Assembly (NCBI GenBank): GCA_905221615.1
Contig: CAJNDT010003824.1
Coordinates: 137,001-201,000 of the forward strand
DNA: 64,000 bases
Direction of reading: 5' to 3'
Source of the DNA: Symbiodinium sp. CCMP2592
Taxonomy: Eukaryota > Sar > Dinophyceae > Suessiales > Symbiodiniaceae
Within the stretch, counting starts at the first letter, position 1. Each line of letters opens with the position of its first letter. Under the pieces are notes generated by a model, which saw only the letters and a list, made by a program, of their open reading frames with translations, was not told the origin of the DNA and did no database searches. Shown here one piece after another: positions 4,512-53,157 of this stretch. The translations under genes were made by a program, and so were the position numbers.

Positions 4512-7500
4512 GTTGTGGTGTGCGTGGCGCGTTGAGCACCAAAGTCTTTGGGACAAGTATGTCGCGGAGAGGAACGACGTCGCCCGGCACCTGCGCCAGC
4601 TGGAACGGAGTTCCATCGAAACTCCCCAGTGGAGGAGCAGATCTGATTTGCAACCTCAACCTGGAGCAAACTTGGATAACGAACTTTCCGCAGCCCCAAG
4701 CTCAGCCCACAACTGCATCACACGCGAGGAGCAAGCTGGAGGACGCCACGGTGGGAATGCCAGACGAGCTCTGTGCCCCCATTGGTCAGTCGGCTCAACC
4801 TGGTTTTTGCGATGCTCAAGGCGAAGGGTTCAGCGAATGTCCCCTGAGCCCTAAACCCCAAAGCCGCTGATTTGCATAGACGGAGAGAGCCACCAGCTTG
4901 ATCATTGAGGCCGTCCTAGCAGGTTTTTTCAGGGTTCAAGTGTTACTGGGCGTTTGGCGTTCAGGGTTTAGCGGTTGATCCAACGCAACCGACCTTGTTG
5001 GTAGGGTCCCTCTACTTTTTATGGGGACCTCGCCAACAGGTACGTTTCAGAAGATCCAATGCCTCGGACTACGGTAAATCTTTTCTGGCAAACCCTAAAA
5101 CACTCAACCCCGACCCCTTCGCCCTAAGCCCTAAACTGAAAGCCCTGAATGTGAGCACCTGAGAGACTGTCGCCCAGGCGAGAGATACCTGCTCCACGGC
5201 ACGAAGCCAGAGGTGCTGCTCGCCAGGGTTGTTTAGTTCGTGGAAAGCAGCCAGGGGTGCTTCTCAGGTTCTGCTTATCCCGAAAATCTAAACCCTATTT
5301 AGGTTTTAGGGCTTCAAAGGGTCGAAGCCACAGGTGCTTCTGGACATTCTACATCAGGGCTTCAATGACAAGCTCGCGAGTCTGAGAGGAATGCCCCTTG
5401 GTCCAGCAACTAGAATCCGCAAACCCTAACCGCAGTTAACGCTGGAATCCCTGCAAGCCCAGCTCCAAAGTCGGAAGCGACGGAAGCCCTTTGTGTAACG
5501 CTTTGGCAGCCCGTCGCAGACGATTCCATTCAATCTCGACGGCCCCGCACCGTTCATTCAAGACGCCGTCATGCGCTTTCCCAGGTTTGGCGCCGGAGCC
5601 TACTTTGCCGAAGATCCGGACATTTGACTGATCACGCATTCTGGTTGGCAGGTAGGGGTCCGCTGTCCTGGCGCAGCGGATGTTGTGACCGATTACACAA
5701 ACAGCGGTTCAGAAGGGGTTTTCGAGTGACAGAAATCAGTTTTCACACCGAGACCCATATTAAGCCATATTGTGGTACAATAACATACCATCATCTAGCT
5801 ATGTTCTGATATACCATAATACACCATGATAACACCACAACATACCGTAATACACCGTAGTATACCATAATATACCCGGCCTTAAGGATTTAGAGCCCAG
5901 GAGAAGATCGACCAATATACGCGGGAAGATCCGGGCCACGAGACCCCTGGCCTGGAGACCTTGCACTCGCGGCTTTACCGCGCAGGTGGCCACCAGCATC
6001 CAGGACCATACCGAGGGATTCGGGTTTAGGGTTTAGGGCTTGGGGTTTAGGGTTTAGGGTTGAGGGCTTTAGGGCTTTTAGGGTTTAGGAGTTTAGGGTT
6101 TAGGGTTTTGGGGTGTGGTGCGGGGAGCCAGCTTGGTTCACGCTTGAAGCACTCTCTTGCCCCCATCTGCCTCCAACCGCCTTCTCCGCACTTCTGATCT
6201 AGATTGATTGCAAAACTGTCGCTTGCACCTTGACGGCCTGACACGTTTCTTCCGACGTAACGCCTCGTAAAACACTGTCAGACATTAGGGAACTCCGTTA
6301 CAGGACCCTAAATAGCAGGATCCTTGTTATCACGAGCTCTGAATCAGGTACGCTTGCTTTGAAAAGACTCCCACACCCTGAACCTGAAAAGGAATCCCGA
6401 CACACTATTCTGATTATTGACAAATATGGGCCGTTATACTAAAGCCCTTATCAACTCCTAGAAGCCCGATAGATGGCTTAAACTGTCATGGATGGGACCC
6501 CACTCCCATCTTTCAGGGCTCTGTATTGCAAGCTTCAGAGCTTCATACTAAGCCCTAAACCTTTAGGCTTGGCTCGCAGGTCTAAAACCCGTTTAAAGCA
6601 TCCCTGTAATTCAGTGAGGAACGCCTCTTAAGAAAGTCTTTTGGGAGGAGATCACATCTTCTACTGCTTCGTGGTTCGGGTGACGTGTGGCGCGTGCTTC
6701 CTGAGCCGAGGCTTCAAAGATTCGCTGCTGGGCTCGGATCTTAACGTGCTTAATGTTTTAGTTTTCAGTTGCCATGGCATGGTGATGACTAGTAGATTTC
6801 ATGCTGTAGAAAGGGCATGTAAAACTCTCGTAACACCCTTAGAAACCACGGAAAATCCAAAGCCTTGAATAACACTCTACAAGAAACGTTAGTCAAAAAG
6901 CTACAGAACCCCTCAAATCCCTTTTGCAACCAACCCCGAGACCCCAAAGCCTGTTTCCGTTGAAGAAGAGCCCAGGCTCCGCGACCACGACAGCGACTTC
7001 CAAGTCTTCGTCAACGAAGACCGCCGGGTGACCCGGCAGAGAGCGGAGCCCAAAAGCCTGGCTGCTTTCCCTCGCCTTCCCTCTCTCGCTATCCCTCTCT
7101 CTTGCTTTCCTTTTCTCACTCTCGCTACGTCGCACCCCGTCTCCGTCTCCCTCTCCCTCTCGTGCCCCGCTCTCTCGCTTTCTCTTTGTCTCGCTTTCCT
7201 TGTCTTTCGCTTTCCCTTGCTCTAATTGTGGCTTGGGGTTTAGGGCCTTAAGGGTTTTTGGGGTTTAGGGCTTTACTCGACGGTGGGTTCGTAAAGGGTT
7301 GTAGGTGGTTTGTAGGGCCGTTAGGGTTCTTAGTGTACAAGGATTTGAGGGTTTTTGATGGGCATTTCTAGGGTTTATACGAAGTGTATGCTCACCGAAA
7401 AACAAAACCAATCGGCTTCCGCGGTGTTTTGAAGCTGTCTCGATCCGAAACTGAGGAGCTTTCGGCTGTGCCCGGATCAGACCCTCGAATTCCCTACCAC

Positions 7501-15352: not shown

Positions 15353-16079
<727 letters not shown>

Positions 16080-28096: not shown

Positions 28097-28154
28097 AGCA
28101 AAGCATAAAGCCAGTGAGCACATTCCCCCAATAAGCAAAGCATAAAGCCAGCGC

Positions 28155-28255
28155 CTGAACCCTAAACCCTGAACCCTAAACCCTAAAAAACCTTAAACCC
28201 TAACGAACCCTAAACTCCTAAACCCTAACAAACCCTAAACCCTAAGCCCTAAACC
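28155..28255. repeat. CCCTAAA telomere-type array
   Basis: One of the densest runs of CCCTAAAC(CCTAA) units in the window, directly after the GTACAAT array. Confidence 0.85.
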
Positions 28256-29100
28256 CTTCCCAAAGGGGGGTCGGTCCAGATTGGACCCAAAATTGAATTT
28301 TTTATACAAACTTTAGTACTGGAGAGGCCTCTTTTGAGCTAGGGTCGAATCCCCGATTCGGCGGTTCACCCTAGCAGCCCCCCCCAATAAGCAAGGCATA
28401 CAGTAGCAGTACAATAGTACAATAGTAGTACAGTAGTAGTACAGAGTCCCATTCCTGACGCCCCAATAAGCGAAACAATTCTGCAAGAGATTTTAGGTCT
28501 TCAGGGCCAGGGTTTTAGGGTTGGGTGGGGGTTTGGGTGGGGGTTTAGGTCGTGGCTGCCTTAAGATTGACCATCAGCAAACAGCACAGCCCCGCCCCCC
28601 AAAAATCCCACCAGCCCAAAAAAAACGCATTGATTAAGACCGCCCAAATTTTTGGTACCGGTCGGAATTAGCCCCCGAGCCGACGCATGAAAGGAGCCCA
28701 TGTTCCTAAACCGACCGGCACATTAGTATAGTATAGCATAGTATAGTATAGTATCGCACTATATTGTAGTATAGTATGGCATAATATAGTATAGTATAGT
28801 ACACTCTAGTATAGTATCGTGTGACATTGTGTTTTTCGTAGAGGGTTGGACAAAGTAGTATAAAACAGCAGAATGATGGAGTATGGTATCATGTTATGGG
28901 CCGTGGTCATCATAGGGGCTGGCCCGTTTTTGTTCAGCTTCCTAGGTTGAGAGGGCATCTCATCTTGCCCCTGCGGTAGATATGGGTGCTTTCGTTGCAT
29001 GTGATTTGTTCGTGGTGCTTTAGCTCTGGGGCTGGAAGGGTGATGTTTCGAAGGTCACACCCTAAACCCTAAACCCTACTAAACCCCTAAACCCTAGATT
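28256..29100. other. Spacer with TAGTA tandem array
   Basis: A TATAG/TAGTATAG array lies at about 28,725-28,815. The rest holds telomere-like motifs (28,500-28,560; 29,060-29,095) and no supported gene. Confidence 0.5.
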
Positions 29101-30938: not shown

Positions 30939-31842
<904 letters not shown>

Positions 31843-34815: not shown

Positions 34816-36490
34816 TTTGGGTTCAGGGCCTCCAGCCAGGCTGCAGCCGGCGTCCGCCGCTTCAAGCGCTGCGACCATAGGGCCGTAGGATGTTCGATGC
34901 TTGCTTGGCATGGAAGCCTCAGACAGAAATCGGATTCACGCAGGGAGACAGGATTTCATGGTTTTGGGGTTTTGCTATTTTGGGGCGTTTAAGATGCGCG
35001 GGCGCGGGTGGCAATCCTGCTCTGCCATCCGACACGGCTCAGTCTTGCTCTGGTGGCATACATAACTTAAGAATTCTTCACCCATCCCGCTCGTGTGTCT
35101 ATGTGTGTGAGAACCCTACTCCCTAAATCCTGGACCCGAATCCCTAAACCCTAAACTGTGCTCCCGTGTCCGAAAAGCCGCAAAGCATCCATAGCGGCTT
35201 GGGGTTTAGGGTTTTAGGGTTTTAGGGTTTTAGGGGTTTTAGGGGTTTAGGGGTTTAGGGGTTTCGGGTTTAGGGTTTACAGGTTTCGGGTTTCGGGTTC
35301 GGCCTTTGGGGAATGGGAGAAGACCTCGGAAAGCAAAGAAGCCCAGCCGCGGAGGATCCTTACCCAGCGGCCCTGTAGCCATGCGTACCCGCTTCCCAAC
35401 AGCTTTGGGCTCCAATTTCTTTTATTGCAACTTTGTCTGTCAACTCCAAGCCCTGCCCTGCGCGATGCATGCCGCGGGCTGAGATTCGGTTTGGGGGCAT
35501 CCTCGCTGGACATTGAGGGATCCAGGAGCAGTTTCTGAAGCCCTCGACTGCCGGACACGATCGTAATGAAGCATTTCTATGACATGTGCTTTAGGGCTTT
35601 AGGGTTTAGGTTTTATCGGATTTCTCTCGCCGGCTTTTCGACATGGTTTCTTGACATTCGGCCATCAGTCGGGTTTGCATGTGGCTCTGTGGCTCCGGAG
35701 ACCAGGGTTTGATTATAATACCTGGTCATGTTATATGTAATGCACTTCCGTGTAGTATAGTACGTATAAAACCCTAAACCCTAAGTACCCTAAACCCCTA
35801 GACCCCAAACCCGAAACCCAACACTTCGAGACCCGATTTGAGTTAGCCCATCGGTTCCAGCAACGATGGCTTGGTTGCTCCTGGGACCTGCCCCTTCAAG
35901 CCCTGCCCCTTCAAGCCTAAGCGCTACGCTCCTAATCCCTAACTTCTAAGCCCTATAAGCCCTAAACCCTGCAAGGTGGTAGGGCTGCTCGTGCTGGCGC
36001 TGGGCGTCGCGGAGTCTGCGCGAGCTCGGTTCTCGGCACGGGGGAGTCTCGGGCTGGTTCGTAGAGTCGAATCCGGGCACCGATGCTCCACAGATCAGCA
36101 GGGGAACTAGGGTGACTAAGAGGGCCCTTGTTACTTTCGGCAACATTATGCAGTTTGGAGCTCAGAGCGTCTGGGGTGTTGGTTCGGCGGGATGGGATGT
36201 CTTTCGAGCGTTCGAGGATCATCGAAAGGCAAGGTTTCGAGCATGTTCGAGCCAAGCCCCCCACTCTCTCCACTCACGGCGCCAGGTGTACACAGAGGGG
36301 AGCTTGGCCACAGCTCAGGCGGCTGGGGACCAGGCACCTGCGGTGTGGTTTAAGCTTTTGGCAATATCTCGTGGTGCTGCATGTCACACTCTCATTCGCC
36401 ACTCGCTGGGTCTGTTGAGAGCATGGTTCTGTGATCTACGCCAATCTACGCGCTGCTGCCAGGAGCGTCTGCTCGAGGTCGCGTGCGTGA
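34816..36490. repeat. Upstream part of ankyrin segmental unit 3 (blocks P1-P4)
   Basis: Same order as in unit 1: P1 about 34,820-35,200, telomere-type repeats 35,200-35,295, P2 about 35,300-35,770, P3 about 35,845-35,930, P4 about 35,970-36,490. A second empty version of the DIRS insertion point lies at 35,753/35,754. Confidence 0.65.
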
Positions 36491-38837: not shown

Positions 38838-39316
<479 letters not shown>

Positions 39317-39318
<2 letters not shown>

Positions 39319-41033: not shown

Positions 41034-41038
41034 GTTAG
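41034..41038. other. Target-site duplication GTTAG, left
   Basis: GTTAG precedes the left LTR and is repeated at 49722-49726 directly after the right LTR. Confidence 0.9.
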
Positions 41039-41245
41039 TCTAAGACTACGGCAGCAAGGGATGGCTGTTTTCCCCTGTGCTTCGGCAAAAGCTCATGAGC
41101 CTGAGTCGTCGAGGAGCGAAGCAATGCCATATGCACTGGAACATCCCCCTCGAGGAGCGAAGCAATGCGATATGCACCGGAACACCTGCGTAGAACGGCC
41201 TGAAAGAAACTGTGCAAAGGCCTAGCAGCGATCTTCAGATTTACA
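41039..41245 (-). repeat. 3' LTR of element A
   Basis: On the minus strand it reads TGTAAATCTGAAG to GTAGTCTTAGA. It contains two tandem copies of a GAGGAGCGAAGCAATGC-based unit. The polyprotein stop codon lies a few codons inside this LTR. It differs from the 5' LTR at one base (CCCCCTCGAGG against CCCCCTTGAGG on the plus strand). Confidence 0.93.
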
Positions 41246-44200
41246 CTGCTTCAAAACAACGTTTCCCTCCTTCAAAGGGAGACTCAGTCGCCCTGAAAGA
41301 GGCCACCAGTCACTAGCCAGTTTGGGCTTCGTCAGTATGTCGGCTCGTTGAAGATGAGTCGGTACCCAAACCAAAGGTGCCCGGGCATCATCGTGGTCGG
41401 CGGTCTCCTCCGTCAGCGTCTGTCGTAGGCAAGCAATATCTATCGCGAGGCGACGGTCGGAGGGAGTTCTTGGGAGTCCATCACGGTGCATGTGATCATA
41501 AAGGGAACGGCAATCGGTGACTCCCAGGATTGGAATCCCTTTTCCTGAATCCCTGGTGATCTTGCCGGAGAGGAAGGAGTCGATCATGGCCCTCACGTAC
41601 TGCCCGAGCTCGAAACCCTCAATGCACCCCATGGTTTCCGCACCAAACGTAGATCTACACACCCTGTCGCAAGCATGGGATCGCCATTCCAGAATGCTGG
41701 CCGGTGAGCCCGCGGAAGTGACTCCGTCTTTGCCGCAAACCATCACCAAAGTTCCGAGTTGTGATGCCACACTCGAGTTCCTTTTCTTCGTCTTGCGGGC
41801 CTTGTTCACCCACGGTCCTTCGGTGATCCTGCCGTTGCGCTCATCCTCCTCGTAGAGAAAGTAGACGGGGTCCGCGTTGGAGTCCGGCGCGTTGCTCCAC
41901 CCTGCATCATGAAACACAGTCACCACCATCTCGTCGAGGGGAACCTTCGCCAGGAGGATGCCCTCGTCCTTGTGCAGTAGTGCCCGCTTCGCCATGGTGT
42001 TGGTAAAACGGATGTCCTCGATCGTTGGTCGGGCCTGTAATTGTTGGCACATCGATACTCCACAGGCCAAATCTGGCCTTGACTGCGATGCCAACCATGA
42101 TAGGGCACCAACCAAGGAACGGTTGTCCGCAACTTGTTCAGGGTCAGCGAGTGCATCGGCGGGTGCCTTGGGGTCCACGTAGATCTCGAAGAGTCGGTTG
42201 GTGGCATAGGAGGACTGAGAGACGAAGATGCCATCATGTCGGGTCTCGATGTGGGAACCGATGAAATCGAACACGTCCTCTTCCCATTCGTCAACCGGAA
42301 AACATTTGGAAAGTTGTTCCTGAACAGATGCACGTAGGGCTCGAGGTCCAACCAGAAGGATATCATCAACATGAACCGCTGCGTAGCAAAGGGGCGGTCC
42401 TGTGCCACGCTTGCCCTCGGCATCAAGCTCAACCAGTTGGAACACGCATGGGTCCAACGGGGAAGCGAAGAACTTGCCCTTCTTGTTGTCGGGAAGGTCG
42501 ATGGTCAAGTTCTGGATATCCTTCTTGAACTTTTTCCACCACTTCCGGGGACTGTCAATCAATCCGAACACCCCCTTCTCGATCTTAATAAGTTGGTCTG
42601 GGTGAAGGCCCGGAAGTCCATGTTTGGGTTGTCGTAGATAAAGTTCACGATCCAGCTTCTCGCCGTTGAGAAACGCTGCGGTCACGTCGCCTGCGGCGAT
42701 GCCCCAATTGGAATCCAGCTGGGAGGCGGCCAACTGGAGGAGCGTCATGACGGCAGTGCGAGACACTGTTGGCGAGTCGGTCCGAAGGGCACCGGAGATG
42801 ATGTCCGGGTCGGTGTGTCCGGACACCACCAGCCTTGACTTGGCCTTCCATTCGACCGAGGGATCGGTCCGTCTTCGGGCCAAGTTCTTGTCGCGGTACG
42901 CAAACCGCGAGGAGAGCACCCGTCCTGACTTCATCTTTTCTGCGCTCTCGGTCACATCCAGTGGGCGGAGAGCCCCCAAGCGGAGATGTTCTTCCCATTG
43001 CTTGTGTTCCGCATCGATGAACAGCTGCCTTTTCTCTTCTGGAATCATATTCCAAGGGATCTCCTTCTCAAGCTGTTTGTCCCTGCCCCGTTTGGTAGTC
43101 GCTCTCTTCAGCATATGGGCCTCGTTGACGTTCTCCTTCTCCTTCGGGTTCTCGTAGGGCTCTGGTCTCTTCGTGGAGAATCTCTTGCGGACGGCGCGGG
43201 GGAGATCTTCGCGAGGAGGTCCAGGTGGCCTTTCATCGGGTAGGTCGCCGTTATCAAGTTCCATGTCTCCTGTCTCGTTCTCGCCTTCTTCGCCTTCGGG
43301 TTCGGAGAGATCCATGATCGCATCGAAGAGGTCCTTGTCCCCGATCTCGGCATCGTCCTCACCCGGGAAGACCGCAGAGTCGTCGTAGTTCCTCTCGACC
43401 AAGCGAAGTAGATCGTCCTTTGTAGCACGGAGCGCAAACATTCCGCCCAGCTCCTCGGGAAGAGCCTTGCGCAGGTGCTCTGGGGCGCAAAGGTAGCACC
43501 GTCCACTGTGTGATACCCAGTAGTTATTGTCCTGGCGTCCGATGATGGTGCCAGGCCCCTTCCACAGACCGGTCTTCTTGTTCGCGGGCTTTCTCCAGAA
43601 AAGGACCATGGCACCATTGTCGAGGTCTCTAGGCTTCACCCGGGCCCTCTGGGACATTCCCCGCCGAATCTTGTCTTCGGTGCGGGATCTGAAGAAGGAG
43701 AGCTTGGCGGCGTTCCGGATCATCTCACGGCGTTGCTGTGCGGAGTCTGGGGTCCTGAGCAGTTCTCCTCCGCCTTCTTCTACTTCAAAACGTAGATCAT
43801 CGTCACCGCGGGGGTTCTTTCCAAAGACGATCTGGCATGGGGCCCACCCACAACGGCGCCGTAGTTCATTTTTTGCGGTGGACGTCGCCGCGATGGCTTC
43901 CTCGACTTCGTCGCCACGCACCGTCTGGTCCTGCACGACCCTCGCAAAGATCTCTTTCCACCACTTGCCGTGCCTTTCTGTGAACCCGGACTGCCAATGA
44001 GCCTGCCCCGCGCTGGTACGAAGGTCGATGTGAAACCAATCAGCAAGGCGGCCGAAAGCATCCTGGATTCCTCTCTCCAAGTCGAGCGTGATCACCTTTG
44101 GGGCCCCAAACACCTGGATCCAGTGCTTCACGAAGGCTTTCTCGAGCACCGTCCCGGTTTGTTGGGGCACTTGTACCACCACTTGGTAGGAAGAGGCATG

Positions 44201-47200
44201 GTCCACGATGGAAAACAGCTTGATCTTCTTGCCGTCGATGTCGTAGTCATACATCATGTCGACGCCAACCACGTCTCCAAATTCCAACAGCTTCGGTTCT
44301 GCTGCAGGGCGGGCGCTCTTTGGACCTTTAGTCCTCGCACAGGTAGAACACGAAAGGCTCTTTGCTGCTTTGATCACGTCCTTGTCGGCCCCGGCAAGGT
44401 GCAGATGGCGGACCAGGTCCTCACGGGCAGGATGTCCGAGGTTCTGGTGTAGACGACGGAGAGCGGCTGCAGTGTCCTTGGGAACCTTTTTGTCGAACGT
44501 AATTCCAGCAGCACCTTCGCGGAGAGGGCGCTCGTCCTGATCATCTCGAGCATCTCCTTCTGCCATGTGGTTGGAGACGGTCTCTATAGCTGTAGCCCTG
44601 AAACATTGCTTGTTGTCGAGGAAGACTGTGCTGACTGACCCAAAAGTGGCGAGTTGGCGAAGCACTCTCTGTTGGGACTGCTCTGGTAGAGGATCGGTGG
44701 GGATCACAACTGAGCCGTAGCGCTGTACCTGCCATCGTCCACATACATCCACAACTTCGAAGAACTTCGCCTCATCAAACGCCCTGTTCGGAGGGGCTGG
44801 ATTGATCCACAACATAGAAGGCCTGGACTGGTCGAGCATAGTGATCAAGTAGTTCCCGGAATCAACCTGCGGGACGTCGTTCCAAGGGACCGGTTCCGCG
44901 ACGTAGCATCCGAAATCATTCGTCGCCTGCAGGGTCTGCTCGATCCCACCAATCTCAAGCAGGGCCACCGCCGGAGCAGGAAGAGGTTCCTGGGTCGGAG
45001 AGGCCAAAGCAAGAGATAACGAAGACAAAGACCAGGTGAGGAAAGCACTGGCTCTGGAAGCATTCCTCCACAAACTTTTCCTCATGCTCTTCTTGGGCCT
45101 CGAAGTCGTTGTTGAGGTAGAAGGGAAAGTAGTGGTGTCGGTGCCTTCGCCTCCTGGAGGCGGCGTCGCCCTCTGTGAAGGGAGGTGATTGACGATCTGT
45201 TTGCGGTCACGGGAGAGGTGGCGTAGATCATGTAGTGGGAATCCCCAGAAACGGAGTTGTCGGCGTTCTCCTTGTGTACTTCCGGCAAATCCCCTGGTGG
45301 AAAAAGCCGTCACGGACCACCTGTCACCGGCAGTCCATTGTTGGGCCGAGTGGAAGCGCTCCGGCACAAAGGACACCACGGTCCCGGAAGTAGGCTGCAC
45401 CTTCCCCTTGATCTCGCGCCCCTTGGGGTCCAACACGATGTCGTCACCCTTGGCATGCCCATTCTCCTGCCACAAGCCTCCTCCACCAGTGAAGTCGCCG
45501 GCGCAGGTGATGTAGTTCAAGGTGCCTCTGAGGTTGTTGAAGTCGGCGTGAACTCGTGGAGAACAATTGTACGCAATCGAGAGGGATGACCACCTTGCAT
45601 CGGGTTGTTTTGCGAGGATGTAGTTCTTGAGGTAGATGCAAAGGGACGCGTACTTCGAGGTATTGGCACAGATCCCCCTCATGTTCCCGTAGGTGTAGTA
45701 GCCAAGGGAAATCCTGCAGGAGCCGGTGTCACCTTCCCCCATAGCCTTTTTCCTAGCCCGAGCACCTCGATTGGGAAAGTCTTCTCCGTTCTTGCCGAAG
45801 GTGGCCTCCAAGACCGAAGCAAGGGTCTCCGCAGAGTAGTCCTCCTTGAGGATGGCCTCCGAGAGGAAGTTCTCGACATTCTCAGAAAGCAACACAAAGG
45901 AGTCCTGGTCCTCGCCGACGAGTTCCTCCCATATCTCCTCGTTATCTTCGTCGCCCTCGTGGTAGGAGAACACGGCGTCCTCGGTCTCCCCGGAGATTTC
46001 GCACAGGTCCTGTTCCTCGCGGAATCCGGAGTAGGCTCCGCTCACTGGGGGCCCACCTGGTCCTTCAGCACCGCAAGGCGTTGTTCCAATGCCCTGATCT
46101 CTTCCAGGACCTGCTCCGGCGGGTCCACATGCATCCGCTCCTTGGTGGCGTTCTTCTCCGCGCCGCGCTTCGTAGGAGACGCCTTCGGAGGGGTCTGGGC
46201 CGTGAAGCTCGAAGGAGTCAGGGGCTTCTGGTCCTTGTCCGCCTGGCTCATCGCTGACACCTCCTCCCAAGACCGGGACGACGCGGACCCTGGATAGGGG
46301 ATCTTGGCATAGCGCTCGGGCTCCTCCATCATCTCGCGGCGGGACGGTCCCGCCTTCACTTCCTTCTCCTCCGACGTCCGGCGGTACCACAGAACAAAGC
46401 GCTTGAGGTCCGGACTCATGTTGATCCCGTTCTCCCGTTCTTCGCGCGAGGCCCACTCCGCATACTGTCGAGGAATCTGGAAGTAAGCACTTCCTTTGTA
46501 GCGCCCGATCGTCATGATGGTGTTGTCCGGCGTCTCGTGGTAGTCCCTGATGTGGCGCATCAGCGTTCCCCTCGTCACCTTGGAGTCGTAGGCCACTCCG
46601 ATGCGATCTGCCTCCATCTTCAGATCGGCGAGCTTCATCCCCGACATCCCTTTCGGGACACCCTTCTCCTCCTTGTCGATCGCTTTGGACTCGGTGATCG
46701 CGCTGCGCAGCTCCTCCACGGTCCATGTTGACATCGGGTTCAGGTTGAGGCGGGTCGCTTCGGAGAGGAGCTCGCTCTTGGTCATCTGCCATGTTGGGCG
46801 AGACGACATTACCAGAGAGGCCGGGAGGAGTTCGAATTGGGGCAATCGGTCTACGATTGAACACTGTTCGGCCGATCCAGAGGCATTGGTGGCAGTTCGT
46901 GGCATCGGCAGGCATCGCATTCCAGAAGTCAACTGCAAGAGGAAGACCGCGCTGAGAACGACAACTGATGCTGAAAGTTTCCCTGACGCTACCGAGCACC
47001 TTCAGGAGATTGTCTCGTAGCAATGACTGTTGTGTATTCCAATTCACAGGACTGAACAGGGATTTCCGAGGAGTGACATGGATGCGTATCAGAGAATATT
47101 GTGTCTCTATCCAAAAGTCTGATGAAATACGGGTCCCGTTCCACCATTTCACGAAGTTCTCGACAGACAGGGTCTCACTGATAAGGATGTTCTTCACTTC

Positions 47201-49486
47201 GGGAGGGATCTTCTTGGCATAAAATATCTGAGGAAACTGTGCTTGAGGTGGTCGGCTTTCGGGGAGAGCGTTAACTGCTACAAAGGCTTCGTAAGGTCCC
47301 GTTCCCCCACTGCAGTCCGCCATGTATGCTGCCGAGTCGAGAAGGATCTGTACCTCTCCGCGGACGCACTTATTGGCGTCCCACATCTTGGGCTGTGCTT
47401 CCAGCGGGATGCCCTGGCCTCCGGGATGAACGCTTATTGCCGGATGCCCGGTGGGGGTCGAAAGCAGAGGATGGCCGCTGACACGCACAGCTTCGAAGTC
47501 CGCCTTGTGCTCCTTCAGGTTATAGACCATTCCGAGTTCGGCTAAAACAGAGCGGCTCAGTAGTAGTGGTAAGTCTCCATGGATGATAGCCACCTTCACG
47601 AGCACCCACGAAGAACCCACCTTGAAAGAAACCACGATGGCATAGTTCGAGGAATAGATCCTAGAAGCTCCGAACCTGAAGTTGTCTGACTCACCCAGCA
47701 AAGGAACCTCGATGTTGAAGGCCTTGAGGACCTCCACATAGCGCTGCAGCCACGAAGTTCCTGCTACCGATTTGGTACACGCACTGTCGGTAATCGCAAG
47801 GAGGTTCTCGCTCAAAGGACCACTCGTCATGAAAACCTCGTTGGAGATGTTGGCGGTCTGGGGCTTGTTAGGTTCAGGGCTTCCTTTGGGCTTACCGTTG
47901 GGAGGTCCAGGGCATTCAGGATCTTTGTACCAGTGGCCGCGCTGTTTGCAGACACTGCAAAAGGAGCGCTGTTTGGCGCTCAGGATCTTGTTCTCGATGG
48001 CTTTCTTCACTTCATCTGGCTCCAAGTTGCGCCCTTTTACTGCATCACGGTACTGGGCCTTCGCAGTCATAAACGCCTCGTAGAGCTCGGCCTCCTCCGG
48101 GTTGAGGGGGTCCTCGGCGTCGAGGTCCTCGTCGGCCTCCTCAGGGATGGGCTCCGCGTTGTTGGCGGAGTTCACCTTCAGGTTGTTCTTAGCTCGTTCC
48201 CAAGGCTTTGGGTGGTCCTTGTCCCAGGGGCGTCGAAGACTCTTCTCATGAAGAACTGCAGCACGCTGAAGCTTGGTACACACGAACTCGTTGTTCACGC
48301 TCCCAAGGATGGCCAATTCCTCGGAGTGGGACAAAGACAGCGCGCTCAGATAAGCCCAAGCGCGAGCGGTCTCCGGAAGCTTGCACTCGATCTCAACCAG
48401 CCTGGCATAAGCACGATCGAAGGTAGCATTGAACTCGCGCACCGATTGGGTCGGGCCCCGCCGGAGCTTCCTGAAGAAACCATTGAGAGCCTCCGCTATC
48501 TTTCCCACTTCGATCTCCTGGTAGCGCTCAGCAATCCATGCCTTAAAACGTTCTACACCGTCAGGAACGCAAAGCTCGGCAACCTCGAGCTCCTCAGCCT
48601 CAATCCACGCGCGCCCCTTGAGGTTCTGGTACAGGAGGAGGGCCTGTTGGGCGCAAGGAGTCCGAGTGACCCGGACCCACGCCTCGATCTGGCGGATGTA
48701 GCTGCGTGCCGATTGTCCGAGCTCGTCTCCACTGTTTTCTGCTGAGAAGGTGGGCACAGACATCCTCTCGCTGAAAGTGCCTCGGCGCTCGCCATCATCC
48801 GACGAAGGAGCACGAGACTGGTTCCCATCAAAGGACTGCTGGTGGGACTGCCACTCTCCTCCAGGAATGGCATTGCGATGCCACTCCGTCTCCCAGGGAT
48901 TATTCGAAGTGTTCGCCGAAGTCGATCGAGTCCACTCGGTCTCCCAAGGTCCAGTCGAATTGTTCGCCGAGTGAGAATTGGACCACTCGGCTTCCCAGGG
49001 TGAGGTAGTCGCCGAAGAAGATCGAGTCCAGGAGGCCTCCCAGGCGCCGCCGTCACCAGGCGAGTGCCCGCGATTCCCAGACCAGGAATGCCCCTGGTTG
49101 TATCCCGAGTTCCAGCCTGAAGACCACGTAGAAGCCCACGATGACTGCTCCGGCCAGGAGCCATTCCACACATGCTTCGTAGGGTCGTAGGACTGCCAAG
49201 GAGAGTTCTCGTTCCAGTCGTGTCTCTCCTCGGGCTGCTTGCCAGAGGGTTGAGGCTCATCGTTGTCCCTGTCAACGGCAGGGTCCCCCTTAGCATTCTC
49301 GGCGTCATCGCCCGAATGCTTCCCCTTTCGCCAAGCACGGCGGGAACCACCGCCGTCATCACCGTGTCCATCGGGAGGATCAACTTCGCCGGGAGGATGA
49401 GCGGCCCGGGCGGCATCAGCCCAGGGATCTAAGGGCGCTGCGGCGCCGTCATCGTCACAAGGTCCATCGCCTAGCAAAGAAGTCAT
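41222..49486 (-). CDS. Copia-type polyprotein with embedded TET/JBP-like dioxygenase domain (2,754 aa)
   Basis: Domains in order: Trp-rich N-terminus with WE(T/A)EW repeats (about residues 144-205); gag with zinc knuckle C510, C513, H518, C525; aspartic protease DSAC (D567); a stretch of biased composition (about 893-1148) that overlaps another frame; an Fe(II)/2OG dioxygenase-like domain (about 1230-1400: H1313-x-D1315, GGGGLW, H1379, R1389); integrase with H1680, H1685, C1713, C1716 and catalytic D1743, D1802, E1837; reverse transcriptase with VHVDD (D2374, D2375); RNase H starting FHDAGW (D2527) and ending near LVWVPTHLQRADILTK. The ATG is 14 bases from the primer-binding site. All catalytic residues named are present and there is no stop or frameshift, so it may be active. 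The dioxygenase assignment is mine, from motif pattern. Confidence 0.9.
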   Translation of the reverse strand: MTSLLGDGPCDDDGAAAPLDPWADAARAAHPPGEVDPPDGHGDDGGGSRRAWRKGKHSGDDAENAKGDPAVDRDNDEPQPSGKQPEERHDWNENSPWQSYDPTKHVWNGSWPEQSSWASTWSSGWNSGYNQGHSWSGNRGHSPGDGGAWEASWTRSSSATTSPWEAEWSNSHSANNSTGPWETEWTRSTSANTSNNPWETEWHRNAIPGGEWQSHQQSFDGNQSRAPSSDDGERRGTFSERMSVPTFSAENSGDELGQSARSYIRQIEAWVRVTRTPCAQQALLLYQNLKGRAWIEAEELEVAELCVPDGVERFKAWIAERYQEIEVGKIAEALNGFFRKLRRGPTQSVREFNATFDRAYARLVEIECKLPETARAWAYLSALSLSHSEELAILGSVNNEFVCTKLQRAAVLHEKSLRRPWDKDHPKPWERAKNNLKVNSANNAEPIPEEADEDLDAEDPLNPEEAELYEAFMTAKAQYRDAVKGRNLEPDEVKKAIENKILSAKQRSFCSVCKQRGHWYKDPECPGPPNGKPKGSPEPNKPQTANISNEVFMTSGPLSENLLAITDSACTKSVAGTSWLQRYVEVLKAFNIEVPLLGESDNFRFGASRIYSSNYAIVVSFKVGSSWVLVKVAIIHGDLPLLLSRSVLAELGMVYNLKEHKADFEAVRVSGHPLLSTPTGHPAISVHPGGQGIPLEAQPKMWDANKCVRGEVQILLDSAAYMADCSGGTGPYEAFVAVNALPESRPPQAQFPQIFYAKKIPPEVKNILISETLSVENFVKWWNGTRISSDFWIETQYSLIRIHVTPRKSLFSPVNWNTQQSLLRDNLLKVLGSVRETFSISCRSQRGLPLAVDFWNAMPADATNCHQCLWIGRTVFNRRPIAPIRTPPGLSGNVVSPNMADDQERAPLRSDPPQPEPDVNMDRGGAAQRDHRVQSDRQGGEGCPERDVGDEARRSEDGGRSHRSGLRLQGDEGNADAPHQGLPRDAGQHHHDDRALQRKCLLPDSSTVCGVGLARRTGERDQHESGPQALCSVVPPDVGGEGSEGGTVPPRDDGGARALCQDPLSRVRVVPVLGGGVSDEPGGQGPEAPDSFELHGPDPSEGVSYEARRGEERHQGADACGPAGAGPGRDQGIGTTPCGAEGPGGPPVSGAYSGFREEQDLCEISGETEDAVFSYHEGDEDNEEIWEELVGEDQDSFVLLSENVENFLSEAILKEDYSAETLASVLEATFGKNGEDFPNRGARARKKAMGEGDTGSCRISLGYYTYGNMRGICANTSKYASLCIYLKNYILAKQPDARWSSLSIAYNCSPRVHADFNNLRGTLNYITCAGDFTGGGGLWQENGHAKGDDIVLDPKGREIKGKVQPTSGTVVSFVPERFHSAQQWTAGDRWSVTAFSTRGFAGSTQGERRQLRFWGFPLHDLRHLSRDRKQIVNHLPSQRATPPPGGEGTDTTTFPSTSTTTSRPKKSMRKSLWRNASRASAFLTWSLSSLSLALASPTQEPLPAPAVALLEIGGIEQTLQATNDFGCYVAEPVPWNDVPQVDSGNYLITMLDQSRPSMLWINPAPPNRAFDEAKFFEVVDVCGRWQVQRYGSVVIPTDPLPEQSQQRVLRQLATFGSVSTVFLDNKQCFRATAIETVSNHMAEGDARDDQDERPLREGAAGITFDKKVPKDTAAALRRLHQNLGHPAREDLVRHLHLAGADKDVIKAAKSLSCSTCARTKGPKSARPAAEPKLLEFGDVVGVDMMYDYDIDGKKIKLFSIVDHASSYQVVVQVPQQTGTVLEKAFVKHWIQVFGAPKVITLDLERGIQDAFGRLADWFHIDLRTSAGQAHWQSGFTERHGKWWKEIFARVVQDQTVRGDEVEEAIAATSTAKNELRRRCGWAPCQIVFGKNPRGDDDLRFEVEEGGGELLRTPDSAQQRREMIRNAAKLSFFRSRTEDKIRRGMSQRARVKPRDLDNGAMVLFWRKPANKKTGLWKGPGTIIGRQDNNYWVSHSGRCYLCAPEHLRKALPEELGGMFALRATKDDLLRLVERNYDDSAVFPGEDDAEIGDKDLFDAIMDLSEPEGEEGENETGDMELDNGDLPDERPPGPPREDLPRAVRKRFSTKRPEPYENPKEKENVNEAHMLKRATTKRGRDKQLEKEIPWNMIPEEKRQLFIDAEHKQWEEHLRLGALRPLDVTESAEKMKSGRVLSSRFAYRDKNLARRRTDPSVEWKAKSRLVVSGHTDPDIISGALRTDSPTVSRTAVMTLLQLAASQLDSNWGIAAGDVTAAFLNGEKLDRELYLRQPKHGLPGLHPDQLIKIEKGVFGLIDSPRKWWKKFKKDIQNLTIDLPDNKKGKFFASPLDPCVFQLVELDAEGKRGTGPPLCYAAVHVDDILLVGPRALRASVQEQLSKCFPVDEWEEDVFDFIGSHIETRHDGIFVSQSSYATNRLFEIYVDPKAPADALADPEQVADNRSLVGALSWLASQSRPDLACGVSMCQQLQARPTIEDIRFTNTMAKRALLHKDEGILLAKVPLDEMVVTVFHDAGWSNAPDSNADPVYFLYEEDERNGRITEGPWVNKARKTKKRNSSVASQLGTLVMVCGKDGVTSAGSPASILEWRSHACDRVCRSTFGAETMGCIEGFELGQYVRAMIDSFLSGKITRDSGKGIPILGVTDCRSLYDHMHRDGLPRTPSDRRLAIDIACLRQTLTEETADHDDARAPLVWVPTHLQRADILTKPKLASDWWPLSGRLSLPLKEGNVVLKQCKSEDRC
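46042..46809 (-). CDS. Overlapping reading frame with SAP-like motif inside element A
   Basis: A 255-residue frame from ATG 46809 runs in a different frame from the polyprotein. It reads MTKSELLSEATRLNLNP, WTVEELRSAITES, GRYKGSAYFQIP and ends LEQRLAVLKDQVGPQ. Its composition is protein-like and the start resembles a SAP-type helix-loop-helix, whereas the polyprotein frame across the same bases is Gly/Arg/Asp-rich. It probably represents the true product of this segment, reached by frameshifting, splicing or separate initiation. Confidence 0.6.
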   Translation of the reverse strand: MSSRPTWQMTKSELLSEATRLNLNPMSTWTVEELRSAITESKAIDKEEKGVPKGMSGMKLADLKMEADRIGVAYDSKVTRGTLMRHIRDYHETPDNTIMTIGRYKGSAYFQIPRQYAEWASREERENGINMSPDLKRFVLWYRRTSEEKEVKAGPSRREMMEEPERYAKIPYPGSASSRSWEEVSAMSQADKDQKPLTPSSFTAQTPPKASPTKRGAEKNATKERMHVDPPEQVLEEIRALEQRLAVLKDQVGPQ

Positions 49487-49490
49487 CTAG

Positions 49491-49514
49491 GAGCCCTAAG
49501 GGCTCCGCTACCAA
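49491..49514 (-). promoter_or_regulatory. Primer-binding site with overlapping hairpin
   Basis: On the minus strand TTGGTAGCGGAGCC directly follows the 5' LTR. TGGTA...GAGC matches the usual copia primer site complementary to a tRNA 3' end (of initiator-Met type in many copia elements). It overlaps a perfect inverted repeat GAGCCC-TAA-GGGCTC (49491-49505). Confidence 0.7.
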
Positions 49515-49721
49515 TCTAAGACTACGGCAGCAAGGGATGGCTGTTTTCCCCTGTGCTTCGGCAAAAGCTCATGAGCCTGAGTCGTCGAGGAGCGAAGCAA
49601 TGCCATATGCACTGGAACATCCCCCTTGAGGAGCGAAGCAATGCGATATGCACCGGAACACCTGCGTAGAACGGCCTGAAAGAAACTGTGCAAAGGCCTA
49701 GCAGCGATCTTCAGATTTACA
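49515..49721 (-). repeat. 5' LTR of element A
   Basis: 207 bp, identical to the other LTR except for one base. It is followed by GTTAG at 49722-49726, the second copy of the target duplication. Promoter and polyadenylation signals could not be picked out. Confidence 0.93.
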
Positions 49722-49726
49722 GTTAG

Positions 49727-50238: not shown

Positions 50239-53157
50239 TCAACCCAGTCGTCTTGATGATGATGAACCCCTCTCTCTCCTTATATAAAGTGGAACCTGCC
50301 CTTCGCACCAATCACAGAACCCGTAGGACTTTACACGATGCGATGCCAAGCGAAAGCCATGACAATCTTGACGAACATGCACATTCTTCCCGTGCTCCGT
50401 CATGTAGAATGGCCCTTCAAACCTGAAATACTCTGCTTGCGGCTCCACGACCTCATGACGCCACTCAGCCTGTGTTCCCGCGTCTCGCAAGATTCCCGGT
50501 CTACTGCTTGATCGTTGGGGACTCTGACGTAGCATTGGAGCTGTGTCCAGCGCCCTTGTCATCGCTCCCTGCATTGCTCCTTCCACTCTCGCTTGAGGTG
50601 TTTGTCCTCCGACATCATGTGACTCATCCCAGGCGCGATCCAGCTCCGTTTCCACCGCGGCCTTGGCTAGGTCCCTCATGCGTTGAAGTCTTTGTGCCTT
50701 CTTTCCTTTTATTGCACGATTCCACATGCAATGACCACACCACTTTACCATCTCCCAGATGGCAACAGCTCCAAGACAACAGACTGCTACTACCAACACC
50801 AGCTCATCAACTCCTGCCAGATTCAACGGCTCCTTTTCTGCCGCCTCTGCAACAGGAACTGACTTTAGCGCCAACGTCAGCAAACACAGCATGATTGTCT
50901 TCACAAGCTTTGATTGGGTGGCCTCGTCAGGTAGACACTCAAAACCCCACATCTCCAGAAGTTCCCAAAGCCGTACTTTAGGGTGCGCCTTAGTTCCCAG
51001 ATCCGCCAGCTGCTTGCGTCCCTCCACAAATTCAATCTGTAGAAGTCCCAGCTCAACCTGTTGTAGAACATAGGCGCTTCGCACTCGTAAGTGCCGGGTC
51101 CTCCATGAGCCCGGCCCTCCCTCCAGCATCGCCGTAGCTGCTGCATTGTCTACTCGAAGTACTCGGTCCACTCGTCTGCCACAGAACTCATCAATCAAGC
51201 AAGCGATTCCTTCCGCAAGAACAGCAGTTTGGGTTGCTTCCAGCAGCTCTGACTCCATTGTTGATAACGTAACCATGCCTTGGCGAGTCGCCTTCCAAGC
51301 AATGGGGCTGTCATTTAGCGTCACCAGCGCCGCTCCGTTGGATCGGGAACCGGTGGGAGCAAAGCTAGCGTCCGAATAGGCTATAACCCTTAACCAATTG
51401 AACCCAGTATCACCTGTGTACGTGTTGTCTGTGCGCGCGGTGTGTGGTGGGTTGCTTGTGGTTGTGCTGCTGCTTGCCGATGCTTCCTTCTTGTAGTCGC
51501 CGATCACGAGCTTCATCTGCACCGTTGCCGACAAGTAGGATAACACTCTTTTGGCGATGCGGGTCACTCTTTTCGGATGCTTTGAAACCCACTGTGACAT
51601 ATGTGCCACGACAAACTGTAGATCAGGTCTGCTCCGCATCGTCAACCATAGTAGTTCGCCTACCATTCTCTGGCCCATTCGTAAATCATCTTCATTGAAC
51701 TCTTCGACATAGCCATCCACATCCTCGGCGACCCATTCCTTTGGACATGGCAACTGCGTTGGGGTGGCCTCTGTCATTTCATGCGACCCCAGCAGATCCC
51801 GAATGTAACCCGACTGTCGTAGTTCAAAAGCTCCCGTGGATGTTTGTGTCACCTCGGTTCCAAGATATCGTGTGCCCTCTGGTGCATCTGCCCATTGAAG
51901 TGTTGAGCAAGGCCATTTTTCACGCACCCAGCTGTCCAGTGCCTGAACCACCTTCGTAGATCCCAAAAAGAAGAGGTCATCGACGTAGGTAACCAACAGG
52001 GCCACCAAAGACTTCTTCTCCTTTTCAACATGATAGACCATCCAAACTTCCTTGTCCACATCTGAGGCCTTCATCTCCAAGTGTCCTTCTTTGTAGGGGA
52101 TCTTCGCTGAAGTCAATCTCCGGGTTCTGCAAGCTGACCATATCGACGGAGATTCCCTCAGACCATATAGTGGTCTCTGCACTAGCCAAACCTCTGTTGG
52201 CGAAGCGTAGCCTCTTTCCACCAAAAACCTTGGCGGTTGAACTGCATACTGAGACAAACCTTCTGGCCACTCAGCCAAAAGAAAGGCCGATGATATGTCA
52301 CTGGATGCTCCTCTCCAGCGCCTTGCAGCTCCATAGCATAGGGCCGCTCTGAAGGTTTCAATAGATGCCCCGCCCGCGTACAACGAACCATATCCTTCTT
52401 CACGTACTGCATGGTTGCCACAAAGAACCAAGCGATAGCGCCTTCGAAGCCGGTTTCCTGCAACATCGGGAGGTTTCAAAGTATGCACCCCTTTGGTCGG
52501 CACAAGTCTCAACTTCCCTTGTCGTTGTAGGTCCGCTGCCTCTTGACTCGAGAGCCTTCGCAAAGTTCCTGAGCCAAACAAACTGTCCAGCTCCTTTTTT
52601 ATTGCAGCATCCCAACGCTCAGCAACAGGACGTACTTGTTCCAGGGGTACTGTGTGAACAACTTGTAAATCACCTTGTAGGTTGTCGATCACAGCCTCAT
52701 AGTCAGGCTCCTGGTTCACAGCAGCCGCCTTCAAACAAGCTTCCATGTTCTTCTTGTCCAAGCCTTCCAACTCCTTGCTCGTACCATGGATCATGTTGTG
52801 GATGGTCTCGGCAATCCTTTTGGCTTCGTCTACCACATGATCACTTGCTTCTTGTAGATCATCAGCCAACGCCTGCTCCTCCTCAAGAAGCAACCTTAGA
52901 GCGGCTGCCCGCTCTTCCATGTCCTCGAGCAACTGTTGGTGAGCTTCATTCAAGCTAGTCAAGGAATTTTGCAACTTCTCTTCATCATTCCCAGACTTGT
53001 GGCTGAGCAACGCAATCTCTTTCTTTTCTGCCACACCCGCCACCAACGGAAAACCCATCTCCTGTAGCTTGATCGCGTTGCCATAGCGAAGGTTGGTAGC
53101 TCTTGGATGGTATGTGACCAACACAACCCGATCTCCTTCATGAGGCTGTAGTTCATG
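50239..53157 (-). pseudogene. Reverse transcriptase and RNase H region of element B
   Basis: A frame open from just after the TGA at 53158-53160 gives about 970 residues. It begins HELQPHEGDRVVLVTYHPRA (the end of the dioxygenase-like domain), followed by a coiled-coil-like region (ERAAALRLLLEEEQALADDL). Then come reverse transcriptase motifs (YRLVLCGNHA, SDISSAFLLAEWPEG, YVDDLFFLG at about 51,965-51,989) and RNase H motifs (AYSDASFAPTGSRSNGAALV at 51,364-51,400, TMESELLEATQTAVLAEG, RVDNAAATAML, EGRKQLADLGTKAHP). The C-terminus has two hydrophobic stretches and a Cys-containing tail (GFCDWCEGQVPLY). Confidence 0.8.

What the first reader, a model, noticed from the sequence alone, without database searches (positions are those of the whole stretch)
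45290..45800. TET/JBP-like Fe(II)/2OG dioxygenase domain inside an intact copia polyprotein
Between protease and integrase of element A the protein has, in order, IAYNCSPRVHADFNN (H1313-x-D1315), GDFTGGGGLW, FVPERFHSAQQW (H1379) and AGDRWSV (R1389). N-x(5)-H-x-D, a G.F.GG block and a distal H...R are the pattern of the TET/JBP branch of 2-oxoglutarate dioxygenases, which hydroxylate thymine or methylcytosine in DNA. All ligand and 2OG-binding positions are present in a young, uninterrupted element. Dinoflagellate DNA is known to contain 5-hydroxymethyluracil, so an element carrying its own base-modifying enzyme would be notable. I know of no description of it in copia elements. Sequence pattern is observed; family membership and function are inferred.
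Basis: partly seen in the sequence, partly recalled or inferred. Interest (0 to 1): 0.88.

Follow-up and report, generated by a model that had tools for sequence, protein, structure and literature searches.

The report
TET-like oxygenase inside dinoflagellate retrotransposons
A family of jumping genes in a coral-symbiont alga carries, inside its own protein, a conserved iron-dependent enzyme domain that looks like those that oxidise DNA bases, in an organism group whose DNA is known for exactly that kind of modified base.

Summary
Observation confirmed. The window is Symbiodinium sp. CCMP2592. Element A (41039-49721, minus strand) is a complete young copia element: 207-nt LTRs with one mismatch, CTAAC target duplication, open 2754-aa polyprotein. 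Residues about 1258-1420 form a 2-oxoglutarate/Fe(II) oxygenase domain. A 23-sequence alignment gives a confident jelly-roll model (pLDDT 91.8); all 42 Foldseek PDB hits at E<=0.001 are base-modifying oxygenases (15 TET, 11 AlkB, 16 FTO), NgTET1 first, but AlkB ties in a second aligner. In the own genome 150 of 150 scored copies (best of 4160 candidates) keep H, D, Asn(D+3) and distal H; 142 keep the 2OG arginine. Median dN/dS is 0.07 among 12 close copies. It sits in 42 of 42 related polyproteins with integrase, before it (16) or after it (26). Tet_JBP is the most frequent Pfam match (17 of 39 representatives, best 1.5e-5), probably below cut-off. So TET/JBP-like; membership and substrate unproven. 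Leading reading: a pyrimidine C5-methyl oxidase acting on element DNA. My searches found no TET-like domain described in a retrotransposon; one 2025 fungal survey reports none. The 2024 paper on the dinoflagellate 5hmU enzyme could not be read.

The parts
41039..49721 (-). Element A: complete copia-type LTR retrotransposon, 8683 bp
   Evidence: paired LTRs, TSD, single polyprotein
49515..49721 (-). 5' LTR (207 nt)
   Evidence: direct repeat, one mismatch to the other copy
41039..41245 (-). 3' LTR (207 nt); the ORF stop lies inside it
49722..49726 (-). target-site duplication CTAAC, 5' side
41034..41038 (-). target-site duplication CTAAC, 3' side
41222..49486 (-). gag-pol polyprotein ORF, 2754 aa (P0001)
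47912..47959 (-). Cys/His knuckle CSVCKQRGHWYKDPEC (gag end, residues 510-525)
   Evidence: position; role recalled, no Pfam match
47774..47794 (-). ITDSACT, aspartic protease motif (residues 565-571)
   Evidence: position; role recalled, no Pfam match
46042..46938 (-). overlapping ORF2 in the +1 frame, 298 aa from TTG (open frame of 319 codons reaches 46998): SAP-like and PF12843-like motif; protein-level selection is in this frame here
   Evidence: weak SAP match (0.18) in relative P0014
45227..45715 (-). 2OG/Fe(II) oxygenase domain, residues 1258-1420, TET/JBP-like
45542..45550 (-). H1313-A-D1315, Fe(II) ligands
   Evidence: 150 of 150 copies; 41 and 42 of 42 proteins; codons
45533..45535 (-). 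N1318, D+3 position; TET2 N1387, NgTET1 D234 and CMD1 D350 contact the flipped base
   Evidence: 150 of 150; role of the TET residues from passages of PMC7854593; that they lie at D+3 is recalled
45470..45499 (-). GDFTGGGGLW block, residues 1330-1339
   Evidence: G1336 and W1339 150 of 150
45350..45352 (-). H1379, third Fe(II) ligand
   Evidence: 150 of 150
45320..45322 (-). R1389, 2OG C5-carboxylate arginine
   Evidence: 142 of 150
45302..45304 (-). F1395 (R+6), position of the base-stacking aromatic in TETs
   Evidence: F/Y in 149 of 150 and 42 of 42; TET residues
44327..44449 (-). integrase zinc-binding segment, residues 1680-1720
   Evidence: motif positions; role recalled
44015..44263 (-). 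integrase core (rve), residues 1742-1824
   Evidence: PF00665 E 0.0058, below its cut-off
42200..42874 (-). reverse transcriptase RVT_2, residues 2205-2429
   Evidence: PF07727 E 9.9e-14, above its cut-off

Best explanation
Element A is a recently inserted copia retrotransposon of a large dinoflagellate lineage that has captured and long maintained a 2-oxoglutarate/Fe(II) oxygenase module of the nucleic-acid-oxidising (TET/JBP-like) type. Shown: complete element, open frame, conserved Fe and 2OG ligands, jelly-roll model closest to TET/AlkB/FTO, purifying selection, presence in many subfamilies at two places (before integrase, or between integrase and RT). Inferred: the protease frees it, alone or joined to the integrase region; it travels with the element's RNA, cDNA and integrase; and it oxidises the C5-methyl group of pyrimidines (T to 5-hydroxymethyluracil and/or 5mC to 5hmC) in the new cDNA or in integrated copies. 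That would either give incoming DNA the host's own 5hmU mark or remove methyl marks that silence it.
Confidence: 0.5

Rival explanations
1. RNA (or single-strand) demethylase of AlkB type: the domain removes methyl groups such as m6A from the element's RNA, as shown in vitro for an AlkB-like protein of orchid Gypsy elements.
For: AlkB and FTO chains are 27 of the 42 Foldseek hits at E<=0.001 and AlkB ties with NgTET1 in VIA-align. Precedent in an LTR retrotransposon (abstract, Results section 12 and Discussion of PMC9289625).
Against: No AlkB-type Pfam model among the matches of 11, 23 or 39 members. The 2OG arginine is 9-10 residues after the distal His, whereas AlkB has a longer spacing and a second arginine (recalled). 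NgTET1 ranks first in Foldseek for both models.
Confidence: 0.2
2. Protein hydroxylase of prolyl-4-hydroxylase/PHD or Asp/Arg-hydroxylase type, modifying Gag, integrase or a host protein.
For: 2OG-FeII_Oxy_3 matches 4 of 39 (best 5.8e-6) and is the only match of the window's own domain (2.6e-4); Asp_Arg_Hydrox matches 10 of 23 (best 3.2e-5). H-x9/10-R spacing and the HEVQP...R...Y segment of one clade resemble PHD2 (recalled).
Against: With the better model no P4H, PHD or AspH chain is among the 50 rows listed by Foldseek or VIA-align, although an unclassified bacterial 2OG oxygenase (6n1f) is; a missing row does not exclude the family. Asp_Arg_Hydrox falls to 2 of 39 when the clades are balanced.
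Confidence: 0.17
3. A fossil or purely structural jelly roll without catalysis.
For: Eight of 150 copies have Met for the 2OG arginine, one of 42 proteins (P0040) has lost both ligand His and one (P0042) has Gln for the Arg, so apparently inactive versions exist.
Against: All four ligands intact in 142 of 150 copies (83 of 89 distinct sequences) and dN/dS 0.07.
Confidence: 0.05

Closest known systems
TET/JBP dioxygenases encoded by fungal DNA transposons (Kojima 2025, PMC12730594; abstract and passages seen)
   Same: A transposon-borne 2OG/Fe(II) oxygenase with HxD (or HxE)...H; closest solved structures overlap (CcTET, NgTET, TET2).
   Different: DNA transposons including Helitrons only; [quoted passage not shown] Here it lies inside a copia polyprotein of a dinoflagellate, with weaker similarity to Tet_JBP.
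AlkB-like 2-ODD in orchid Ty3/Gypsy elements (PMC9289625; abstract, section 12 and Discussion read)
   Same: LTR retrotransposon carrying a 2OG/Fe(II) oxygenase; there with shown RNA demethylase activity in vitro.
   Different: Gypsy not copia, a separate ORF, AlkB/ALKBH5-like, angiosperm; that screen saw no domain gain in plant Copia elements.
DNA methyltransferases in Symbiodinium LINE and DIRS retrotransposons (de Mendoza et al. 2018, PMC5890265; passages seen)
   Same: Same group of algae; retrotransposons that carry a DNA base-modifying enzyme.
   Different: Writers of 5mC in LINE and DIRS elements; the paper says Copia elements lack DNMTs. Words beginning 'TET', 'dioxygenase' and 'hydroxymethyl' do not occur in its main text.
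Naegleria NgTET1, Coprinopsis CcTet, human TET2, Chlamydomonas CMD1
   Same: Jelly roll, HxD...H, 2OG arginine, D/N base-contact position, aromatic at R+6.
   Different: 16-19% identity to NgTET1, 9-18% to CcTet and TET2; no His at R+8; substrate unknown here.

Membership tests
2OG/Fe(II) oxygenase superfamily | double-stranded beta-helix core | tested here: met
   AlphaFold model pLDDT 91.8, pTM 0.88; the 42 PDB hits at E<=0.001 are 2OG oxygenases
2OG/Fe(II) oxygenase superfamily | HxD...H facial triad and a distal Arg/Lys for 2OG | tested here: met
   HDH 150 of 150, R 142 of 150; HDHR set in 38 of 42 proteins. Of the four exceptions, P0009 and P0012 leave the alignment after H1379; contigs of the same lengths (C5203, C895) hold copies L005 and L011 with HDHR, so gene-model splicing is likely
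TET/JBP | Asn or Asp at the base-contact position downstream of HxD | tested here: met
   N1318 150 of 150; TET2 N1387, NgTET1 D234, CMD1 D350. Not exclusive: PHD2 also has Asn there (recalled)
TET/JBP | aromatic stacking residue at 2OG-Arg +6 | tested here: met
   F/Y 149 of 150, 42 of 42; F295 NgTET1, Y1902 TET2, F416 CMD1. Not exclusive (PHD2 Trp, recalled)
TET/JBP | His (or Arg in CMD1) at 2OG-Arg +8 | tested here: inconclusive
   mostly Pro/Thr/Ser at +8; conserved Arg at +9 in 137 of 150
TET/JBP | Pfam Tet_JBP PF12851 above its cut-off (34.9 bits) | tested here: not met
   scores printed are at most 17.7 bits; in the 39-member scan 17 match, best E 1.5e-5, bits of that row not printed, by scaling about 25
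TET/JBP | closest solved structures are TET enzymes | tested here: inconclusive
   NgTET1 first in Foldseek and VIA-align, but AlkB within one Z unit
TET/JBP | oxidises 5mC or T in DNA | not testable with these tools
   needs an enzyme assay
AlkB | AlkB-type Pfam model match | tested here: inconclusive
   none among 11, 23 and 39 members, but fold tie
Prolyl-4-hydroxylase / PHD (PF13640) | Pfam match above cut-off | tested here: not met
   window domain 22.3 bits against 27; 4 of 39 match, best 5.8e-6, bits of that row not printed, so another copy may reach it
Ty1/copia LTR retrotransposon | RVT_2, integrase, paired LTRs, 5-bp TSD | tested here: met
   PF07727 9.9e-14 above cut-off, rve 0.0058 below cut-off; LTRs and TSD
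Ty1/copia LTR retrotransposon | gag-PR-IN-RT order | tested here: met
   motif positions and Pfam; in another clade the oxygenase sits between IN and RT

The most novel reading that the evidence does not exclude
These are the first retrotransposons known to encode a TET/JBP-type DNA base oxidase, they have done so since before the main Symbiodinium copia lineages split, and they (not only a host gene) write 5-hydroxymethyluracil into dinoflagellate DNA, or are the source from which the host's 5hmU writer was domesticated.
Probability: 0.25. Interest if true: 0.92.

Novelty: new variant of a known kind. Interest (0 to 1): 0.76.

Why it matters
Dinoflagellates replace 12-68% of thymine by 5hmU, with unknown function (passage of PMC11071213), and copia is called the most abundant retrotransposon type of Symbiodinium (passage of PMC5890265). 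A conserved, selected, apparently competent TET-like oxygenase inside those elements would tie the two together: elements may mark their own DNA as host-like, strip silencing methylation, or be a source of the modification itself. It also extends transposon-borne epigenetic enzymes from DNA transposons, Gypsy, LINE and DIRS elements to copia, and supplies a compact domain of about 165 residues whose activity can be tested directly.

Tried and rejected
Chance motif: rejected by conservation, selection and model confidence. Broken polyprotein: the stretch of about 290 codons before the domain looked out of frame, and 8 of the 15 database relatives match it in the other frame; in 9 of 9 full-length copies both frames are open there, so in the window this is an overlap and not a break. 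Three of the 12 close copies were dropped from that count for lack of a full-length ungapped match: L003 (contig end), L004 and L006 (stops in all three frames upstream); and in two of the nine (L009, L011) the open frame is out of phase with the oxygenase, so broken copies do exist.

Relatives outside this type of protein: a profile search for short proteins gave 9 hits, seven from the source ena, one from Symbiodinium sp. CCMP2456 and one from the source lgn; their contexts were not seen. Three scans of viral contigs and one of phages (one hit at E 1; a search for Tet_JBP in that record found none) gave no relative. No metagenome scan was allowed. A search of the own genome with PF12851, for host TET/JBP genes, did not complete. 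PHROGs gave only weak matches (best 0.0083). Profile A2 found nothing relevant in PDB sequences.

Short-ORF copies L032-L039 were looked at as possible host genes: no match to four reference polyproteins outside the domain at 1e-6 in 9.9 kb around them and Met for the 2OG Arg in all eight; nature unresolved. CpG observed/expected (element A 0.89, median of 30 loci 0.89, rest of window 0.73, ORF B 0.72) would fit less methylation decay, but coding bias and age are uncontrolled, so it is not used as evidence.

Papers not held: PMC11572971 (Li et al. 2024 PNAS; only its title was seen, in the reference list of PMC12344493; a preprint title by the same first author in the list of PMC12014239), 10.1038/ismej.2017.179, PMC3763556, PMC3918813, PMC2995806.

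Full report
Observation. The ORF 41222-49486 on the minus strand is 2754 aa long. The best database match over the domain is a protein of Symbiodinium sp. CCMP2592 at 100% identity on a contig of 680,881 bases (P0002), the same length as the contig that holds the window in a 1.098-Gb assembly.

The element. A 207-nt direct repeat lies at 41039-41245 and 49515-49721; the two copies differ at one base and are flanked by CTAAC on both sides. RT (PF07727, 9.9e-14) and a weak integrase match (PF00665, 0.0058, below cut-off) follow the oxygenase in the polyprotein; gag-knuckle, protease and integrase zinc motifs are in the expected order (roles of the motifs recalled). The element is therefore complete and young.

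The domain. Residues 1258-1420 hit only 2OG-FeII_Oxy_3 in Pfam, below its cut-off. A search with residues 1230-1440 gave 15 proteins at E<=0.01, and one with a distant hit (P0015) gave 27, P0015 among them; with the window's own protein that makes 42. The alignment of all 42 keeps H1313 in 41, D1315 in 42, N1318 in 41, W1339 in 42, H1379 in 41 and R1389 in 39. Of the three without R, P0042 has Gln, and P0009 and P0012 leave the alignment after H1379; contigs of the same lengths hold genomic copies with the full set (L005, L011), so splicing in the gene models is the likely cause. P0040 has lost both ligand histidines. In the own genome the domain query gave 4160 first-look candidates, of which 150 were scored, with E-values of 5.2e-19 or lower and none with an internal stop. 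I obtained all 150: H, D, N1318, G1336, W1339 and H1379 are kept in 150 of 150, R1389 in 142 (Met in eight), the aromatic at R+6 in 149; there are 89 distinct protein sequences. The set was picked by similarity, so it over-represents intact copies. Among the 12 close copies (78-100% identical, the window's included) the median dN/dS is 0.07 in the domain (61 of 66 pairs usable; median dS 1.27, near saturation), 0.20 in the linker before it (residues 1195-1257, 55 pairs) and 0.11 in residues 1440-1700 (46 pairs).

Sequence family. Scans of single members are weak and depend on sampling. Of 11 members 2OG-FeII_Oxy_3 matches 3 and Tet_JBP 1. Of 23, Asp_Arg_Hydrox matches 10, Tet_JBP 7 and 2OG-FeII_Oxy_3 2. 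In a set balanced across clades (39 of the 42 representatives chosen below 55% identity, some trimmed at the ends; P0027, P0028 and P0042 were left out when I made the alignment) Tet_JBP matches 17 (best 1.5e-5), 2OG-FeII_Oxy_3 4 (best 5.8e-6) and Asp_Arg_Hydrox 2. The only relevant PDB sequence found by profile is CcTet (E 1.1 and 0.7; nothing relevant with the 23-sequence profile). Residues that hold the flipped base in TETs, taken from passages of the CMD1 paper (PMC7854593), are matched at the D/N position and at the R+6 aromatic, but not at the R+8 histidine. From memory, HIF prolyl hydroxylases share the first two, so these positions do not decide. I call the domain TET/JBP-like and do not file it as a proven member.

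Distribution and history. Integrase was found in all 42 polyproteins and RT in 39, by BLAST with reference segments that I cut. In 16 the oxygenase precedes the integrase, as in the window; in 26 it follows it (Pfam positions for seven examples). A domain tree of 40 of the 42 (P0009 and P0012 dropped) separates the two arrangements by one branch with support 97/97, found in 98% of 200 bootstrap trees; long branches (P0042, P0016, P0041) make the deep order unsure. So the module was either captured twice or moved once, long ago, and has kept its place in each clade. No viral contig relative was found.

Overlapping ORF. Between protease and oxygenase the polyprotein frame overlaps an open frame of 298-319 codons in the +1 frame (46042-46998). 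In nine full copies this second frame has pN/pS 0.17 and most variable sites at its third codon position (46, 45, 141 of 861 columns), whereas the polyprotein frame there has pN/pS 1.58 but no stop in 9 of 9 copies, although random synonymous choice in the second frame would give 2.6-6.9 stops on average (fraction with none 0.0003-0.054); the reverse resampling gives 2.5-4.0 stops in the second frame (fraction with none 0.006-0.063). Copies share ancestry, so these fractions cannot be multiplied. L004 and L006 are broken here, L003 is cut off, and in L009 and L011 the open frame is out of phase with the oxygenase. In the intact copies the sense frame seems to be kept open without protein-level selection: an overlapping gene, or a region crossed by frameshifts. 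It encodes SAP-like helices and a weak PF12843-type motif.

How it may work. The most economical reading is an oxidase of pyrimidine C5-methyl groups that acts on the element's own cDNA or integrated DNA. 5hmU replaces 12% of T in S. microadriaticum and, in Breviolum, 5hmU pull-down is about twofold enriched for multimapping, repeat-derived reads (passages of PMC11071213). Other Symbiodinium retrotransposons carry DNA methyltransferases (passages of PMC5890265). Catalysis, substrate, release by the protease and the benefit to the element are all inferred.

Literature. Kojima 2025 (PMC12730594; [quoted passage not shown] The orchid Gypsy AlkB (PMC9289625; abstract, section 12 and Discussion) is the nearest retrotransposon precedent. 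Passages of PMC8889193, PMC11453091, PMC12014239, PMC11065753 and PMC12344493 gave no report of such a domain in copia. Li et al. 2024 on the dinoflagellate 5hmU enzyme was seen by title only and may bear on novelty.

Verdict. A real, conserved and selected oxygenase domain inside a young copia element; TET/JBP-like is the best assignment; function is open but directly testable.

Noticed in passing
window 46042-46998 (-): Conserved overlapping ORF (298-319 codons, SAP-like) in the +1 frame of the polyprotein; protein selection is in this frame while the polyprotein frame is stop-free in 9 of 9 full-length copies. 8 of 15 public relatives match it in this frame.
   Followed up: partly
L032-L039 (own genome, eight loci): Short ORFs (206-323 aa) with the same domain but Met for the 2OG arginine; no match to reference copia proteins outside the domain within 9.9 kb at 1e-6; possibly a different carrier or an exon.
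   Followed up: partly
database proteins P0015, P0017-P0040, P0042 against P0001-P0014, P0016, P0041: The oxygenase sits after integrase in one large clade and before it in the other, a rearranged pol order.
   Followed up: partly
P0040: A copia polyprotein in which both Fe-ligand histidines are replaced by Arg while most of the domain is kept.
   Followed up: no
P0042, P0045, P0047, P0049: A further clade with HxD and distal His kept but Gln in place of the 2OG arginine (P0042 by alignment; the others read by eye).
   Followed up: no
P0016: A copia-type polyprotein that also carries a RING finger (PF13639, 2.2e-8) upstream of the oxygenase.
   Followed up: no
window 50239-53124 (-): A second copia-type pol ORF (RVT_2 8.3e-18) next to element A; no oxygenase family matched in it.
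   Followed up: no
window, e.g. 6014-6112, 28154-28257, 35201-35299: Many scattered degenerate TTTAGGG-type (telomere-like) arrays inside the window.
   Followed up: no
window 15496-16059, 30944-31528, 38843-39317: Long microsatellites (units of 3 or 6) of 475-585 bp.
   Followed up: no
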